Below, one piece after another: positions 8,707 through 56,065 of a stretch of DNA of 64,000 nucleotides. The notes beneath the pieces were generated by a model, which made no database searches, was not told the origin of the DNA, and saw nothing but the letters and a program-made list of their open reading frames with translations. A program made the position numbers and the translations under genes. The stretch is from Mesobacillus sp. S13 (lineage in GTDB: Bacteria; Bacillota; Bacilli; Bacillales; Cytobacillaceae). Position 1 is the stretch's first letter. Every line of letters starts with the position of its first letter. The stretch is from assembly GCF_020422885.1 (NCBI RefSeq), contig NZ_CP084622.1, forward strand, positions 4,607,001-4,671,000, given 5' to 3'.

Positions 8707-9147
8707 TTATTTATTTTCATACTCCTTGATCTTGCCTACTCGGTTTTCGTGACGGCCGCCTTCATATTCTTCCGAAAGCCACACGGCTGCGATTTCCCGC
8801 GCCAATCCAGGTCCAATTACACGCTCACCCATTGCCAGGACATTGCTGTCATTGTGCTGGCGCGTTGCCTTTGCGCTGAATACATCATGCACAAGCGCAC
8901 AGCGGATTCCTTTTACCTTGTTCGCAGCAATGCTCATGCCGATTCCTGTTCCGCAAATCAGGATTCCTTTATCGAACTCTCCGTTCGCCACTTTCTCGGC
9001 AACCGGAAGTGCATAGTCGGGATAATCAACAGATGTACCGCATTCGCAGCCAAAATCTTCATACTGGATATTCATTTCGTCCATCAAATTCTTGATTTCT
9101 TCACGGATGTTCACTCCGCCATGGTCTGAAGCAATAGCAACTTTCAT
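8707..9147 (-). CDS. rpiB: ribose-5-phosphate isomerase B
   Basis: Interconverts ribose-5-P and ribulose-5-P in the pentose phosphate pathway (YwlF in B. subtilis). 146 residues with the RpiB signatures IASDHGG at the N-terminus, the catalytic-cysteine segment FGCECGTSVDYPDYA, GILICGTGIGMSIAANKVKGIRCA and the conserved HND in RQHNDSNVLAMGER. RBS AGGAGG lies 8 bases before the ATG. It precedes ywlG by 34 bases. In B. subtilis ywlE is its upstream neighbour; here a chemotaxis receptor gene stands between them. Confidence 0.95.
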   Translation of the reverse strand: MKVAIASDHGGVNIREEIKNLMDEMNIQYEDFGCECGTSVDYPDYALPVAEKVANGEFDKGILICGTGIGMSIAANKVKGIRCALVHDVFSAKATRQHNDSNVLAMGERVIGPGLAREIAAVWLSEEYEGGRHENRVGKIKEYENK

Positions 9148-9291: not shown

Positions 9292-9430
9292 TATAGCGAG
9301 TTTTCATTTTATATAGCGACTTTTTAATTTATATAGCGAGTTTCTATCTTATATAGCGACTTTTTCATTTTTATAGCGAGAATTTCATTTTTATAGCGAA
9401 TTGGAAATTTCGCGCGATTTTTTCCAATTA
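9292..9430. repeat. phased array of TATAGCGA, six copies at exactly 20 bp, with capping hairpin
   Basis: Copies start at 9292, 9312, 9332, 9352, 9372 and 9392; a decayed copy (TATATACA) sits at 9272, also in phase. The last copy runs into AATTGGAAA ... TTTTTTCCAATT (9399-9430), an inverted repeat that also caps the second array at 45178-45315. It occupies most of the 325-base gap between the receptor terminator and rpiB. No gene was found. Confidence 0.92.
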
Positions 9431-9472: not shown

Positions 9473-10768
9473 TTATAACGAAAACTTCGTAATCGTACCT
9501 TTTAATTTTTCCGCCTGAGTCTTCAGGTCTACCGCCAGTTCTTCAACATTCGCGATGACTTCTGCCTGCTGCTCTGCGGCTGATGCGACGCTTAGTGCTC
9601 CAGCTGAGGTTTCTTCTGCGATTGCCGCCATTTCCTGCGACTGCGTAGAGGTGTGCTGGATTGTTTCCATTTGGGTTTCGACTAGCGCTGTGATCGCATG
9701 GATGACATTTGCCATCTCATGGATTGTCGATGTCATTTCGTCGATCACCTGGTTCGTTCTCTCACCTTTTTTCGCTTCACCGTTCGCGGTTTCAACCTGC
9801 CTGCTGATCTGGCCAACCACATTCCGGACTTCTGTCTGGATGTTTTGGATCAGTTCTGATATTCCCTGAACGGCGTCTGCACTCTGGTCCGCCAGCTTCC
9901 TGACTTCTTCAGCAACGACTGCAAACCCTTTTCCATGCTCTCCAGCACGCGCTGCTTCAATCGAGGCGTTCAATGCGAGCAAATTCGTTTGCGCGGCGAT
10001 ATCGCCAACAAGCTGGATGATTTGCTCTACCTTAGTCGCATTCTCTTCCAATCTTTTTACTGTACCTAGAGATTCACGGTTATCATTTGCAAGTGTTTCG
10101 ATGCCTGAAATCAGTGAGTGGATTGCATTTTTCGATTCCTGCAGGTCTTTGACCATTTCCACAGAGATGGATTCAGATGCTCGCGCTTTTTCCTGGACAT
10201 CCTCGGCGATACGGATGACTTCATCGACAGACTCAGCAGTTGTCTGTGTCGACAATGCTGAGGAGTCAGCTCCCGCAGAGATTTCTTTAATGGTTGTCGA
10301 GATGACGGACGCCTGCTCAGAGGCTGCAGCAGATTGCCCGGAAATCCGGATGACTTTCTCGTTTGTTTCTTTAAAGTTACTATCTATCTGGCTCACCATT
10401 TCGCGCAGGTTTGCGAGCATATTATTGAATGCCAATCCTAAAGATCGGATCTCATCATCTGATTTCGAAACTTCCGCATCCTCGCCAATCTCACCTTGTG
10501 CTGCTTTTAAAGCAGACTGTTCAAGCTTTTGAAGCGGCTTGATAATCAGCCCGGCAGCCATATACGCAAGCAGGCCTGACCAGAAAATCCCCATAGCTAG
10601 AACTGCCGCCGTATAGACGACCGAATTGATCTGGATAAAATTTTGTACATAAGGCTGCAGGAAATAAATAAAAATTGCACTCGTTGAATACGTGATGATC
10701 GCCAACACAGTCGTCAGCATGACCATTTTCTTTCTTAATCCCATTTTGTAGCTGCGTTTAGACCCCAC
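9473..10768 (-). CDS. methyl-accepting chemotaxis protein with almost no extracellular domain
   Basis: A 431-residue receptor. Two membrane helices (about 13-35 and 42-62) are separated by only a few residues, so there is no external ligand domain. A HAMP region follows (about 62-125, ending [10 protein letters not shown]), then the coiled-coil signalling domain with the conserved tip [39 protein letters not shown], split here by position about 250-285, which contacts CheA/CheW. Start is GTG with GGGGG 7 bases before. It lies between ywlE and rpiB, which are adjacent in B. subtilis, so it is an insertion. It probably senses membrane state or a cytoplasmic cue; that is inference. Confidence 0.9.
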
Positions 10769-14044: not shown

Positions 14045-14431
14045 TTAGTTATTGTTGTTACTGCGGGAATTACCGCCTTTTTCACCGATTTCTTCATAGA
14101 AGCTTCGATCATGGTTTTCAGAGGTCGCTTCTCCGCCTTTGCGGCCGATCTCCTGATAGAAGTCCTTATCGTGGCTTTCTGATGTTGCTTCGCCACCCTT
14201 TTTCCCGATTTCCTGGTAGAATTCGCTGTCATGGCTCTCAGCAGTAGCCTCTCCGCCTTTGCGGCCAATTTCCTGATAGAAATCTTGATCGTGATTGTTC
14301 GAAGTTGCTTCGCCGCCTTTACGGCCGATTTCCTGATAGAATTCGCTGCCATGGTTTTGGCTTGTAGCTTCGCCGCCCATGCGTCCTCGTTCTTCACGTG
14401 ACATCTTATCATTATTATTGTTTTTAGCCAT
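14045..14431 (-). CDS. GsiB-like general stress protein of KGG repeats
   Basis: A very hydrophilic 128-residue protein made of five near-identical 20-residue units, each GGEAT(S/A)xxHDxxFYQEIGRK, ending in a KGG and an Asn-rich tail. This is the KGG (stress-induced repeat) pattern of B. subtilis GsiB, a desiccation- and glucose-starvation-induced protein with LEA-like character. Start is set at the second ATG (14431), because AAGGAGG touches the first ATG but is 9 bases before this one. The DNA repeats have a 60-base period, so copy-number change by slippage is likely. A sigma-B-like promoter lies upstream. Confidence 0.88.
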   Translation of the reverse strand: MAKNNNNDKMSREERGRMGGEATSQNHGSEFYQEIGRKGGEATSNNHDQDFYQEIGRKGGEATAESHDSEFYQEIGKKGGEATSESHDKDFYQEIGRKGGEATSENHDRSFYEEIGEKGGNSRSNNNN

Positions 14432-15524: not shown

Positions 15525-15620
15525 GGTCGATATATTCGGAAAATCCGCTGATATAATTAAAAATGTGGTCGATATATTTAAAAATCCGCTGATATAATTA
15601 AAAATGTGGTCGATATATTT
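15525..15620. repeat. phased array of GATATA, five copies at 20-21 bp
   Basis: GATATA begins at 15529, 15550, 15571, 15591 and 15612. Alternate copies lie in GGTCGATATATT and CCGCTGATATAATT, so there is also a 41-42 bp higher-order repeat. It lies between the convergent cupin and spoIIR genes. The adjacent AGCGGAATTTCC (15508-15519) resembles the AAGCGGA dyad family. Confidence 0.8.
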
Positions 15621-15669
15621 GGAAAATCGCCATTATCTGAACTGCAATCTATCTTCTTAGCTAAAAATA

Positions 15670-20641: not shown

Positions 20642-20691
20642 TCTTTTCATCTCCTTCCGCCCTGAATCATATCCGAAACAGAGTTATAATC

Positions 20692-44194: not shown

Positions 44195-45154
44195 ATGATT
44201 ATTCGGTTGGGCTATGTATCCACCGCCATCAGCCTGTGGGATGCATCTCCCTCCAAGGCACTTACATTCGCTCGTTACGGACAGCTGCCAAAGGAAGAAC
44301 GGCATGAAAAGCTGCTGTCGGTAACCTATCAAAACCTTGTGAACACGGAAAGAATGATTCATTACAATATCGCCCATGATATCCCATTGTATCGATTCTC
44401 AAGTTCGATCGCGCCGCTTGCGACCCACCCGGAGGTCAAGTGGGATTATGTGACCCCGTTCCGTGAAAAATGGCTGGAAATCGGCGCATTGGTAAAAAAA
44501 CATGGGCTGCGAACAAGTTTCCATCCAAACCAATACACGCTGTTCACTTCACCGAGAGAGGAAGTGACGGCCAATGCCATCATCGATATGGAATATCATT
44601 ACGGAATGCTCAAAGCGATGGGACTGGAGAATGACGCGCTGATCAATATTCATATTGGCGGGGCTTACGGCAACAAGGAAGAGACGATTTTGCGTTTTCA
44701 TGAAAACTTCGCAAAGCTGCCTGCCCATATCAAAAAAATCACCACGCTTGAAAACGATGATAAAACCTATAATACGTCGGAAACACTGGGTGCCTGTATA
44801 AAAGAGGATGTAGCCTTTATGTTCGATTATCACCACCATATGGCGAATCTCTGTGAAGAATCACTGGAGAACCTGCTTCCTGCCGGCTTCGCAACCTGGG
44901 AACGGACCGGGCTGAAGCCTAAGATCCATATCTCCTCCCCAAAATCCGAAAAAGCGTATCGTTCACACGCCGATTATGTTGATCCAGATTTCATCCTGCC
45001 ATTGATCGAAATACTGAAGGGTATCGGCCAGGACGTCGATTTCATGATTGAAGCGAAGGAAAAGGACAAAGCAGCTTTAAAGCTCGTCGAGGATTTGGCT
45101 AAAATCCGCGGAGTGAAGCGGATTGGCGGGGCTGCTTTGGAGTGGAAAACTTAA
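44195..45154 (+). CDS. uvsE: UV DNA damage endonuclease
   Basis: Nicks DNA 5' to UV photoproducts; TIM-barrel metal enzyme (YwjD in B. subtilis). 319 residues starting [20 protein letters not shown], with metal-ligand segments [26 protein letters not shown] and FDYHHHMAN, and KIHISSPK and FMIEAKEKD near the C-terminus. RBS AAAGGAGTG. It forms an operon with clsB. In B. subtilis uvsE protects spores; here no specific sporulation promoter was seen. Confidence 0.95.
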
Positions 45155-45177: not shown

Positions 45178-45315
45178 TATAGCGCAAATTTTATTTTTAT
45201 AGCGAGATTTTGTTTTTTATAACGAGTTTTTCATTTATATAGCGAAATGATCGTTTATATAGCGAGAATCCATTTTATATAGCGAACTGGAAAATCTGCT
45301 GTATTTTTTCCAATT
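45178..45315. repeat. phased array of TATAGCGA, six copies at exactly 20 bp, with capping hairpin
   Basis: Copies start at 45178, 45198, 45218 (TATAACGA), 45238, 45258 and 45278; linkers differ. The last runs into AACTGGAAAAT ... TTTTTTCCAATTG (45285-45315), the same cap as in the array at 9292-9430. It lies between uvsE and the argS terminator. Confidence 0.92.
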
Positions 45316-45320
45316 GAAAA

Positions 45321-45350
45321 AGAGACCCAGCCATCTTCGGCTGGGTCTCT
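45321..45350. terminator. terminator between uvsE and argS
   Basis: AGAGACCCAGCC/GGCTGGGTCTCT perfect 12-bp stem with a 6-base loop. It serves argS (minus) and may also stop uvsE transcripts. Confidence 0.9.
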
Positions 45351-45362
45351 TCATATTAGAAA

Positions 45363-47033
45363 TTACATCTTCTCCGGTGCAGATACTCCAATCAACTCAA
45401 GTGCATTCTTCAATGTGATTTGCGCTGTCTTGATCAATGAAAGACGTGCTATTGTTCTTTCTTTATTCTCCAGATCAAGTACTTTTTCAGCATTGTAGAA
45501 GCTGTGGAATACGGATGCCAGCTCGAAAATGTAGTTTGAGATTCGGTGCGGCATGCGCTTCTGGGCTGCTTCAGCAACGGCCAGCGGGAATTCGCCAAGC
45601 TTTTTCAGCAGGTCGATTTCCTTCTCGGACTGGATGTGCTTGAAGTCTGCCTCAATGTCAAAAATCAAGCCTTGCTCAGCTGCAGAACGCAGGATGCTGT
45701 TGATGCGGGCATGTGCATACTGTGCGTAGAACACTGGGTTTTCATTGGACTGGGAAACAGCCAAATCAAGATCGAAGTCCATATGAGTGTCCGCGCTTCT
45801 CATCGCGAAGAAGTAACGAACTGCATCCAAACCTACTTCATCAATCAGGTCACGCATTGTGACAGCCTTGCCTGTACGCTTGCTCATCTTCATCTTCTCG
45901 CCATTCTTGTATAAATGGACGAGCTGGATGATTTCAACTTCAAGCGCATCCCGGCCATAGCCTAACGCCTCGATTGCTGCCTTCATACGCGGGATATAAC
46001 CATGATGGTCCGCTCCCCAGATGTTGATCAGCTTCTCAAAACCGCGCTCAAGCTTGTCCTTATGGTAAGCAATATCTGGCAGCAGGTAAGTGTATGATCC
46101 ATCCTGCTTGATCAGCACGCGGTCCTTGTCATCACCAAGCTCTGATGAACGGAACCATGTTGCGCCATCCTCTTCAAAGATATGGCCATTTGAACGCAAT
46201 GCATCAAGAGCCACATCGATTTTTCCATTTTGGTATAGAGAAGTTTCTGAATACCAAACATCGAACCTGACACGGAAGTTCTCAAGATCCTGCTTCAGCT
46301 TTTCCATTTCATATTTCAAGCCGTACTCACGGAAAGCATCGAAGCGCTCCTGGTCCGGAACATTCACGTACTTATCGCCGAATTCTTCAGCAAGCTTGTG
46401 CCCGATTCCAATAATATCAGCACCATGGTAACCGTCCTCAGGCATCGGCTTGTCCATGCCAAGCGCCTGGAAGTAACGTGCCTCAACAGAAAGCGCTAGA
46501 TTATTGATCTGGTTACCAGCGTCATTGATATAGTATTCACGGGACACATCATATCCAGCCTTGGCAAGAACATTGCACAATGAATCGCCGACAGCCGCGC
46601 CACGAGCATGTCCCAGGTGAAGGTCACCGGTCGGGTTGGCAGAAACGAACTCGACCTGGATCTTCTCGCCATTTCCTACATTTGATTCACCATATTTGTC
46701 GCCTGCTTCAAGGATTGCCGGAATCAAGTCCGTCAAATAGCTGTTATCCATATAAAAGTTGATGAACCCTGGTCCTGCGATTTCGATCTTCTCAATGGAT
46801 GCCTTGCTGTTATCGAAGTTTTCGATCAACTGCTCTGCAATCTGGCGAGGGGCCTTTTTCGCCATGCGCGCAAGCTGCATCGCCATATTCGTAGAGTAAT
46901 CCCCATGTGCTTTTTCCTTTGGCGTCTCTAAAATAACAGCCGGAATTTGGGCTTCCTCAGCAAGGCCCGCTTTGATGATCGCCTGCTTGATTTCTTCCTT
47001 CAGCTTCAATTGAACCTGTTCAACTATATTCAT
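45363..47033 (-). CDS. argS: arginyl-tRNA synthetase
   Basis: Class I synthetase of 556 residues. The HIGH motif appears as [12 protein letters not shown], preceded by FVSANPTGD; the KMSK motif is [12 protein letters not shown]; an N-terminal Add1 domain (about 1-90) and a C-terminal DALR anticodon-binding domain (about 440-556, [11 protein letters not shown]) are present. Its ATG overlaps the ywiB stop by 4 bases. No T-box leader is seen. The order ywiB-argS matches B. subtilis. Confidence 0.98.
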
Positions 47034-55690: not shown

Positions 55691-55753
55691 TTTTCTTTTT
55701 TGTTACCAGTTTACTTGATACTTACCTGTTCCAGGCTCATTTTTCCTCTTATT

Positions 55754-55996
55754 GTGCCCATGACTCTCGATTTTCCTTTTCACGGGCACATGTTTCCCCT
55801 TCTTGTGACCGTGATTCTCGTTTTCCTCTTTTCACGGGCACTGTTTCCCCTTCTTGTGACCGTGATTCTCGTTTTCCTCTTTTCATGGGCACATGTTTCC
55901 ATTTCTTGTGACCGTACTCCCTCAATTTCCTCTTTCACGGACACATGTTTCCCCTTCTTGTGACCGTGATTCTCGTTTTCCTCTTTTCACGGGCAC
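55754..55996. repeat. alternating-orientation array of GTG(A/C)CCGTGA
   Basis: Forward copies (GTGACCGTG or variants) begin at 55754, 55805, 55856, 55908 and 55960; reverse copies (CACGGGCAC or variants) at 55781, 55833, 55884, 55936 and 55988. Same-orientation pitch is 51-52 bases. Linkers are pyrimidine-rich on the plus strand (TTTCCCCTTCTT, TCTCGTTTTCCTCTTTT). It fills the 407-base gap between convergent ywhB and ywgA. The frames that run through it are not genes. Confidence 0.9.
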
Positions 55997-56065
55997 ATAT
56001 TTCCCTTTCTAACAAAAAATCGAGTACAAAACCCAATAAAGGGTCCCATACTCGATTCATAATTC

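What the first reader, a model, noticed from the sequence alone, without database searches (positions are those of the whole stretch)
9292..9430. TATAGCGA arrays with an exact 20-bp pitch and a shared capping hairpin
Both copies (9292-9430 and 45178-45315) have six TATAGCGA units exactly 20 bases apart, variable AT-rich linkers, and end in the same AA(T/C)TGGAAA...TTTTTTCCAATT inverted repeat, directly before a gene terminator. A shared start-to-end architecture with unrelated linkers means selection on spacing, not simple duplication. The element could be a phased protein-binding array, a bent-DNA or nucleoid site, or a structured RNA end.
Basis: seen in the sequence. Interest (0 to 1): 0.78.

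Follow-up and report, generated by a model that had tools for sequence, protein, structure and literature searches.

The report
Capped six-unit phased DNA repeat arrays
The bacterium carries dozens of short DNA arrays, each built of about six look-alike sites two helix turns apart and mostly closed at one end by the same small palindrome; they sit between genes, are kept across related species, and look like landing pads for a DNA-binding protein that is not yet known.

Summary
In detail: two TATAGCGA arrays at exact 20-bp pitch, each closed by the same inverted repeat (the second copy has four exact cores and two with one mismatch). The host genome has 23 such arrays. Exact pairs occur in 18 of 21 genomes of its genus (Mesobacillus, inferred) and in 0 of 172 genomes of 24 other genera of the family.

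They belong to a catalogued but unexplained class, the Bacillus tandem repeats of constant 20-21 nt size (PMC8161180). The architecture I did not find described: about six units; a palindromic cap at one end; a second family (core TATTGGCGA) with the same cap and length; and a third, uncapped family (TATCGACC/TATCAGCGG) that takes the place of TATAGCGA at one site in three relatives. In orthologous arrays cores mismatch at 5.0%, linkers at 38.9%.

Arrays alone fold worse than shuffles as RNA. None of 40 flanking ORFs scanned is a mobile-element protein. Best reading: helically phased protein-binding arrays of set size with an architectural or insulating role. The protein and the role are inferred.

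The parts
9292..9399 (+). Type A array 1: six exact TATAGCGA cores, 20-bp pitch, A/T-rich 12-base linkers
9400..9429 (+). Cap of array 1: inverted repeat ATTGGAAA...TTTTTTCCAATT
   Evidence: cap found at 27 sites of the genome
9441..9463 (-). Terminator-like stem-loop of the minus-strand chemoreceptor gene, next to the cap (neighbour, not part of the element)
   Evidence: read; one search shows it is a tendency, not a rule
45178..45285 (+). Type A array 2: six units at 20-bp pitch, four exact TATAGCGA plus TATAGCGC and TATAACGA
45286..45315 (+). Cap of array 2: ACTGGAAA...TTTTTTCCAATT
45322..45350 (.). Terminator-like stem-loop between the convergent UvdE-family gene and argS (neighbour)
   Evidence: read
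15525..15636 (-). Type B array: TATCGACC / TATCAGCGG units at 21/20-bp pitch, preceded by a unit with ATAATGGCGA (15627-15636); no cap
8707..9147 (-). rpiB-like gene (LacAB_rpiB), reads away from array 1
9473..10768 (-). Chemoreceptor gene (HAMP, MCPsignal), reads toward the cap of array 1
44195..45154 (+). UvdE-family endonuclease gene, reads toward array 2
45363..47033 (-). argS (arginyl-tRNA synthetase), reads toward the cap of array 2

Best explanation
Each element is a double-stranded DNA landing pad: about six copies of a short core on one face of the helix (20-21 bp is two turns), arranged as 40/41-bp pairs, about 120 bp in all, and in families A and C closed at one end by a palindromic cap. 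The most likely mechanism is that a DNA-binding protein, or a few related ones, binds the cores cooperatively, helped by the bend of the phased T-tracts, and forms a complex of set size and polarity; the cap marks or seals one end. Lying between transcription units, mostly past one gene's terminator and often short of the next promoter, and mostly in the origin half of the chromosome, such complexes would act as architectural or insulating elements. Shown by sequence: pitch, core, six-unit length, cap, position, conservation, and replacement of one core family by another at one site. Inferred: the protein, the cooperative binding, and the architectural or insulating role.
For: Pitch 20 in 486 of 513 steps, 106 arrays. 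Six units commonest (57 of 126) and the exact-core fraction falls from 0.79-0.97 for units 1-6 to 0.29 (28 arrays) at unit 7, counted from the cap. Core mismatch 86/1720 against linker mismatch 831/2136 in 37 orthologous pairs. Cap by a relaxed pattern after 114 of 126 type A arrays against 33 of 2394 control positions. A second core family with the same cap, 25 of 47 arrays having six units. Type B in place of type A at the rpiB site in 3 of 21 genomes, same orientation, at least two switches on the argS tree. Predicted curvature 1.153 against 1.052 for shuffles. Not RNA-structured. Arrays lie between genes: 1 of 106 overlaps a mechanically called ORF. Origin-proximal half holds 39 of 48 A+B+C arrays of the own genome.
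Against: No binding protein was identified or looked for. Core conservation is overstated because arrays were called by their cores, and unit gain and loss inflates linker mismatch. Unit number differs in 255 of 314 orthologous pairs, so six may be a founding length and not a selected one. Type B has no such cap. The origin bias is weaker for B (8 of 10) and C (11 of 15) alone, is 3 of 5 in G003, and could reflect the greater age of origin-proximal DNA.
Confidence: 0.5

Rival explanations
1. Old non-autonomous mobile elements: direct repeats beside a palindrome, like the repeat-plus-hairpin ends bound by HUH-type nucleases (analogy recalled), scattered to intergenic sites by an enzyme acting in trans and then drifting.
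For: Dispersed copies with sharp ends: similarity between paralogous arrays runs from near the first unit to the cap end and stops. The caps are palindromes. Presence and absence at a site vary among species.
Against: No near-identical copies in the own genome: 14 of 1436 hit pairs reach 85% over 100 bp, one of them being two arrays of the same locus. Many arrays sit at orthologous sites: 25 of 34 flank-defined groups have more than one member. No mobile gene in 40 flanking ORFs. I did not find an empty site clean enough to show a target duplication.
Confidence: 0.2
2. Function-free satellites: slippage and recombination expand 20- or 40-bp units, and the constant size comes from the replication or repair machinery.
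For: Unit number changes quickly (it differs in 255 of 314 orthologous pairs) and linkers are more alike two units apart, as 40-bp duplication would give.
Against: Slippage would keep linkers as alike as cores, but cores stay near-exact while linkers diverge. It explains neither the six-unit length nor one cap shared by two core families.
Confidence: 0.15
3. RNA element: arrays are transcribed as 3' untranslated regions or small RNAs and work as sponges or processing signals.
For: The cap can form a 9-12 bp hairpin; at positions 2 and 6 some changes are compensated (83 of 105 flanks scored). In 39 of 97 arrays the gene on the far side reads into the array. PMC8161180 raises the small-RNA idea.
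Against: Arrays alone are less structured than shuffles on both strands, and with the cap mean z is +0.31 and +0.59 (40 arrays). The cap-side gene, where it reads toward the array (73 of 103), often has a strong stem-loop before it (28 of 45 in tandem, 9 of 19 in convergent arrangement). The one Rfam match of the window is elsewhere.
Confidence: 0.1

Closest known systems
Constant-size 20-21 nt tandem repeats of Bacillus (Subirana and Messeguer 2021, PMC8161180; parts 1-3 of 5 of the text and the tables section read)
   Same: Non-coding tandem repeats of constant 20-21 nt size, several sequence families per genome, a short signal kept in all units, species- or genus-specific; B. selenatarsenatis is listed with 30 repeats of 20-21 nt and 49 of 51-53 nt, shared with B. 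boroniphilus and B. subterraneus.
   Different: The paper's main text does not contain the words hairpin, terminator or intergenic; I saw in it no cap, no six-unit length and no replacement of one family by another at one site.
RemA target sites and LrpC wrapping (PMC8481266, passages only)
   Same: Protein rings or octamers that wrap AT-rich, periodically repeated DNA; the epsA region has at least six periodic protected stretches.
   Different: RemA repeats are 7-bp protected stretches about 10 bp apart at a promoter; here the pitch is 20-21 bp, the core is sharp, there is a cap, and arrays lie between genes.
TAACTGA direct repeats (PMC4679880, abstract and outline only)
   Same: Many sets of an intergenic heptamer direct repeat of unknown function in one genome.
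   Different: Mostly just upstream of start codons and read there as post-transcriptional sites; different core and taxa.
REP and bcr-type dispersed intergenic repeats (listing and abstract starts only; otherwise recalled)
   Same: Short dispersed intergenic elements with a palindromic part.
   Different: Those are stem-loop units; here most of the element is a phased direct-repeat array and the palindrome is an end cap.
Plasmid iterons and DnaA-box clusters (recalled, not tested)
   Same: Arrays of protein sites about two helix turns apart (iterons).
   Different: Different cores, dozens of chromosomal copies; no replication gene among the flanking ORFs scanned.

Membership tests
20-21 nt constant-size Bacillus tandem repeats (PMC8161180) | Unit of 20-21 nt, most units of equal length | tested here: met
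   Pitch 20 in 486 of 513 steps (type A); 20 or 21 in 200 of 202 steps (type C)
20-21 nt constant-size Bacillus tandem repeats (PMC8161180) | At least four repeats | tested here: met
   Six units in both window arrays; 117 of 126 type A arrays have four or more
20-21 nt constant-size Bacillus tandem repeats (PMC8161180) | Several sequence families per genome with a short conserved signal, limited to species or genus | tested here: met
   Families A, B and C in the own genome; A and B pairs only in one of 25 genera of the family, C in two
20-21 nt constant-size Bacillus tandem repeats (PMC8161180) | Not protein-coding | tested here: met
   1 of 106 arrays overlaps a mechanically called ORF; the pitch is not a multiple of three
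RemA-type wrapped operator | About 10-bp periodic, poorly conserved 7-bp sites | tested here: not met
   Sharp 8-bp core at 20-bp pitch
RemA-type wrapped operator | Binding by RemA or LrpC | not testable with these tools
   Needs pulldown, EMSA or ChIP
Mobile element of MITE or REP type | Near-identical dispersed copies | tested here: not met
   Best distinct-locus paralogue pair about 87% over 150 bp; 14 of 1436 hit pairs reach 85% over 100 bp
Mobile element of MITE or REP type | Target-site duplication at a filled versus an empty site | tested here: inconclusive
   Empty sites (G017, G011 at rpiB) are too diverged to read a junction
Structured RNA | Folding better than dinucleotide shuffles | tested here: not met
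   Mean z +1.29/+1.43 without and +0.31/+0.59 with the cap, 40 arrays
Structured RNA | Match to a described RNA family | tested here: not met
   Only Rfam match in the window is an L31 leader at 20651-20683

The most novel reading that the evidence does not exclude
A modular class of bacterial chromosome element in which pitch (two turns), length (six sites, three 40/41-bp pairs) and polarity (a one-sided palindromic cap) are set by a conserved assembly while the recognition core is free to be swapped: TATAGCGA and TATTGGCGA share one cap, and TATCGACC/TATCAGCGG can take over the same site. It would be a dedicated, genus-wide insulator or chromosome-folding module and would explain why the 20-21 nt Bacillus repeats keep their size but not their sequence.
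Probability: 0.3. Interest if true: 0.8.

Novelty: new variant of a known kind. Interest (0 to 1): 0.6.

Why it matters
Why many Bacillus genomes keep repeats of a fixed 20-21 nt size but free sequence is an open question in print. These arrays give it handles: a defined start, a defined end, a usual length of six units, a shared cap to fish with, matched core families as natural controls, and an orthologous site where one family stands in for another. If a protein is found, it would define a new chromosome-organising or insulating system in a group of environmental bacteria.

Tried and rejected
Structured RNA: not supported by fold z-scores. Coding repeat: the pitch of 20 is not a multiple of three and 1 of 106 arrays overlaps a called ORF. 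Part of a transposon: of 46 flanking ORFs of the own genome's type A arrays I scanned 40 and left out six short ones; 37 of 40 match a Pfam family, none a mobile-element one, and three match nothing. Array plus terminator as one element: a stem-loop of -8 kcal/mol or better on the cap side is common when the cap-side gene reads toward the array (28 of 45 in tandem, 9 of 19 in convergent arrangement) and less so otherwise (4 of 19, 4 of 10), so I read the terminator as a neighbour. Strand of the cap from G-U against A-C pairs: not decisive, base frequencies explain most of it. Strand against replication: 16 of 23 arrays point against the fork, one-sided p 0.047, weak and expected from gene orientation. 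Plasmid homology: two 29-base matches in Priestia plasmids at E 0.07, judged chance. The letters TATAGCGA inside paper texts: 268 papers, 20 listed, none about these repeats by title.

Full report
WHAT IS THERE. Window 9292-9399 holds six exact TATAGCGA at 20-bp pitch, then a 30-nt inverted repeat (9400-9429), then the terminator-like stem-loop of a minus-strand chemoreceptor gene. Window 45178-45285 holds six units at the same pitch, four exact, then the same kind of cap (45286-45315) and a stem-loop between a convergent UvdE-family gene and argS. Eleven TATAGCGA in the window against 1.20 expected, 0 of 100 shuffles as high, make chance untenable.

GENOME AND GENUS. The window is 4607001-4671000 of a one-contig genome of 4,806,131 bases. 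It has 88 core pairs in the 8-16 linker range, 87 with exactly 12; the reversed control gives 0. They form 23 arrays. Exact pairs occur in 18 of 21 genomes of the genus and in 0 of 172 genomes of 24 other genera of the family; a three-unit pattern occurs in 0 of 292 genomes of 116 other genera in a draw from the order. A named collection returned Mesobacillus subterraneus, M. selenatarsenatis and M. boroniphilus, and records titled Bacillus sp., Cytobacillus oceanisediminis or Chryseobacterium sp. that I take to be mislabelled or unrevised. The genus name is an inference.

ANATOMY. I called 106 arrays in the own genome and in 80 of the 120 named stretches (one own array was split by the caller, so 23 loci give 24 calls), and 126 after adding orthologous loci. 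Pitch is 20 in 486 of 513 steps. Linkers are A/T-rich with constrained positions (382 linkers) and are most alike two units apart (0.660 against 0.590 and 0.583; 0.544 between arrays), so the underlying period is 40 bp. Six units is the commonest length (57 of 126), and the exact-core fraction falls from 0.79-0.97 for units 1-6 counted from the cap to 0.29 at unit 7. A cap follows the last core in 114 of 126 arrays by a relaxed pattern, against 33 of 2394 control positions; by a strict pattern it is at the cap end in 81 of 106 and at the other end in 3 of 106.

THE CAP AND THE OTHER FAMILIES. A pattern for the cap alone, TGGAAA-N(8-16)-TTTTTTCCA, hits 17-43 times in each of five genomes of the genus and 0-5 times in each of 56 other genomes of the family (both strands, self-complementary sites counted twice). 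In the own genome it marks 27 distinct sites: 12 end TATAGCGA arrays, and 15 end arrays with another core, TATTGGCGA (type C; one of these has two units). Over 47 type C arrays steps are 20 (118), 21 (82) or 19 (2), 25 arrays have six units, 37 have a strict cap at the cap end and 0 at the other end. Fourteen of the 47 had been chosen by their cap. Of the other 33, 23 have the strict cap, five more have it by eye with one or two changed bases, one Mesobacillus locus lacks it, and the four loci from another genus lack it. Type C pairs occur in 20 of 21 genomes of the genus and in four of one other genus, where the loci I read have 21-bp pitch. Type B (TATCGACC and TATCAGCGG at 21/20 pitch; window 15525-15636) shows no such cap; in 18 of 28 arrays a unit with TTGGCGA or ATAGCGA lies just upstream. 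Type B pairs occur in 14 of 21 genomes of the genus and in none of 172 others. G011, the one genome of the genus without exact A or C pairs, has in a 160-kb sample a decayed array that ends in the bare palindrome AACTGGTACCAGTT.

EVOLUTION. At the rpiB-chemoreceptor site, found through rpiB and not through the array, 16 of 21 genomes have type A (one short and decayed), three (G016, G002, G004) have type B in the same orientation, and two (G017, G011) have none. On an argS tree with a partly unresolved backbone G004 groups apart from G016 and G002, so at least two switches are needed. In the 260 bases beside argS, 8 of 20 genomes have type A, eight have no array and four have another neighbouring gene. 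In 37 ungapped orthologous pairs, which are not independent, cores mismatch at 86 of 1720 and linkers at 831 of 2136 positions; unit number differs in 255 of 314 orthologous pairs. Two cautions: arrays were called by their cores, which lowers core mismatch, and unit gain and loss raises linker mismatch. Among 39 own-genome arrays, similarity between copies runs from near the first unit to the cap end and then stops, and there are no near-identical copies at different loci.

PLACE. The gene on the cap side reads toward the array in 73 of 103 cases, and the gene on the far side reads away from it in 58 of 97. dnaA starts at base 1. The origin-proximal half holds 20 of 23 A, 8 of 10 B and 11 of 15 C arrays, 39 of 48 together, p 7.6e-6 against an even spread. 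The C set is those with a perfect cap; at least one more C array exists near 167 kb (L267). Four other one-contig genomes show 3 of 5, 10 of 11, 8 of 9 and 17 of 18 for capped type A ends; these share orthologues, and a fifth (G020) was not tested because its start lies elsewhere. Flanking genes are ordinary and show no common theme.

MECHANISM. I favour DNA over RNA. Arrays fold worse than shuffles on both strands (40 arrays). Predicted curvature exceeds shuffles in 89 of 103 (1.153 against 1.052; left-flank control 1.086), though the model's best pitch is 21 and its angles were recalled. Exact cores, one-face spacing, a usual length and a one-sided cap are what a cooperative complex of set size would need. 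RemA and LrpC show that Bacillus-group proteins can wrap DNA around rings or octamers (PMC8481266, passages); nothing here ties them to these arrays. The protein and the architectural or insulating role are inference.

KNOWN OR NEW. Subirana and Messeguer (PMC8161180) catalogued 20-21 and 52 nt repeats of constant size in Bacillus, list B. selenatarsenatis with 30 and 49 of them, and already suggest nucleoid proteins or small RNAs. The finding therefore belongs to a known, unexplained kind. New as far as my searches reach are the cap, the six-unit length, one cap shared by two core families, replacement of one family by another at one site, the placement and the origin bias. I rate it a new variant of a known kind, interest 0.6.

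Noticed in passing
window 55734-56010: Tandem array of 51/52-bp period, about 5.4 copies, of the size of the 52-nt Bacillus class in PMC8161180.
   Followed up: partly
window 15525-15636, minus strand: Type B array (TATCGACC/TATCAGCGG) with a leading ATAATGGCGA unit; the same family replaces type A at the rpiB site in G016, G002 and G004.
   Followed up: yes
G000 316163-316372 (L031, L244) and 3854784-3855172 (L045, L256): A type A and a type C array lie within a few hundred bases of each other, in tandem at the first place and on opposite strands at the second.
   Followed up: partly
L290 11480-11580 (G011): Decayed 20-bp array ending in the loopless palindrome AACTGGTACCAGTT, then a terminator-like stem-loop.
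   Followed up: partly
L279-L282 (G101, G105, G126, G136; genus g18): TATTGGCGA units at 21-bp pitch in another genus, without the Mesobacillus cap.
   Followed up: partly
L292 1487-2100 and 3590-4523 (G011): Long tandem arrays of 40-bp (15 copies) and 42-bp (22 copies) period.
   Followed up: no
window 14108-14377: 60-bp tandem repeat that overlaps minus-strand ORFs; PMC8161180 describes a 60-nt coding repeat of a general stress protein. Link not tested.
   Followed up: no
window 20651-20683: L31-Firmicutes ribosomal protein leader, minus strand (RF03156).
   Followed up: no
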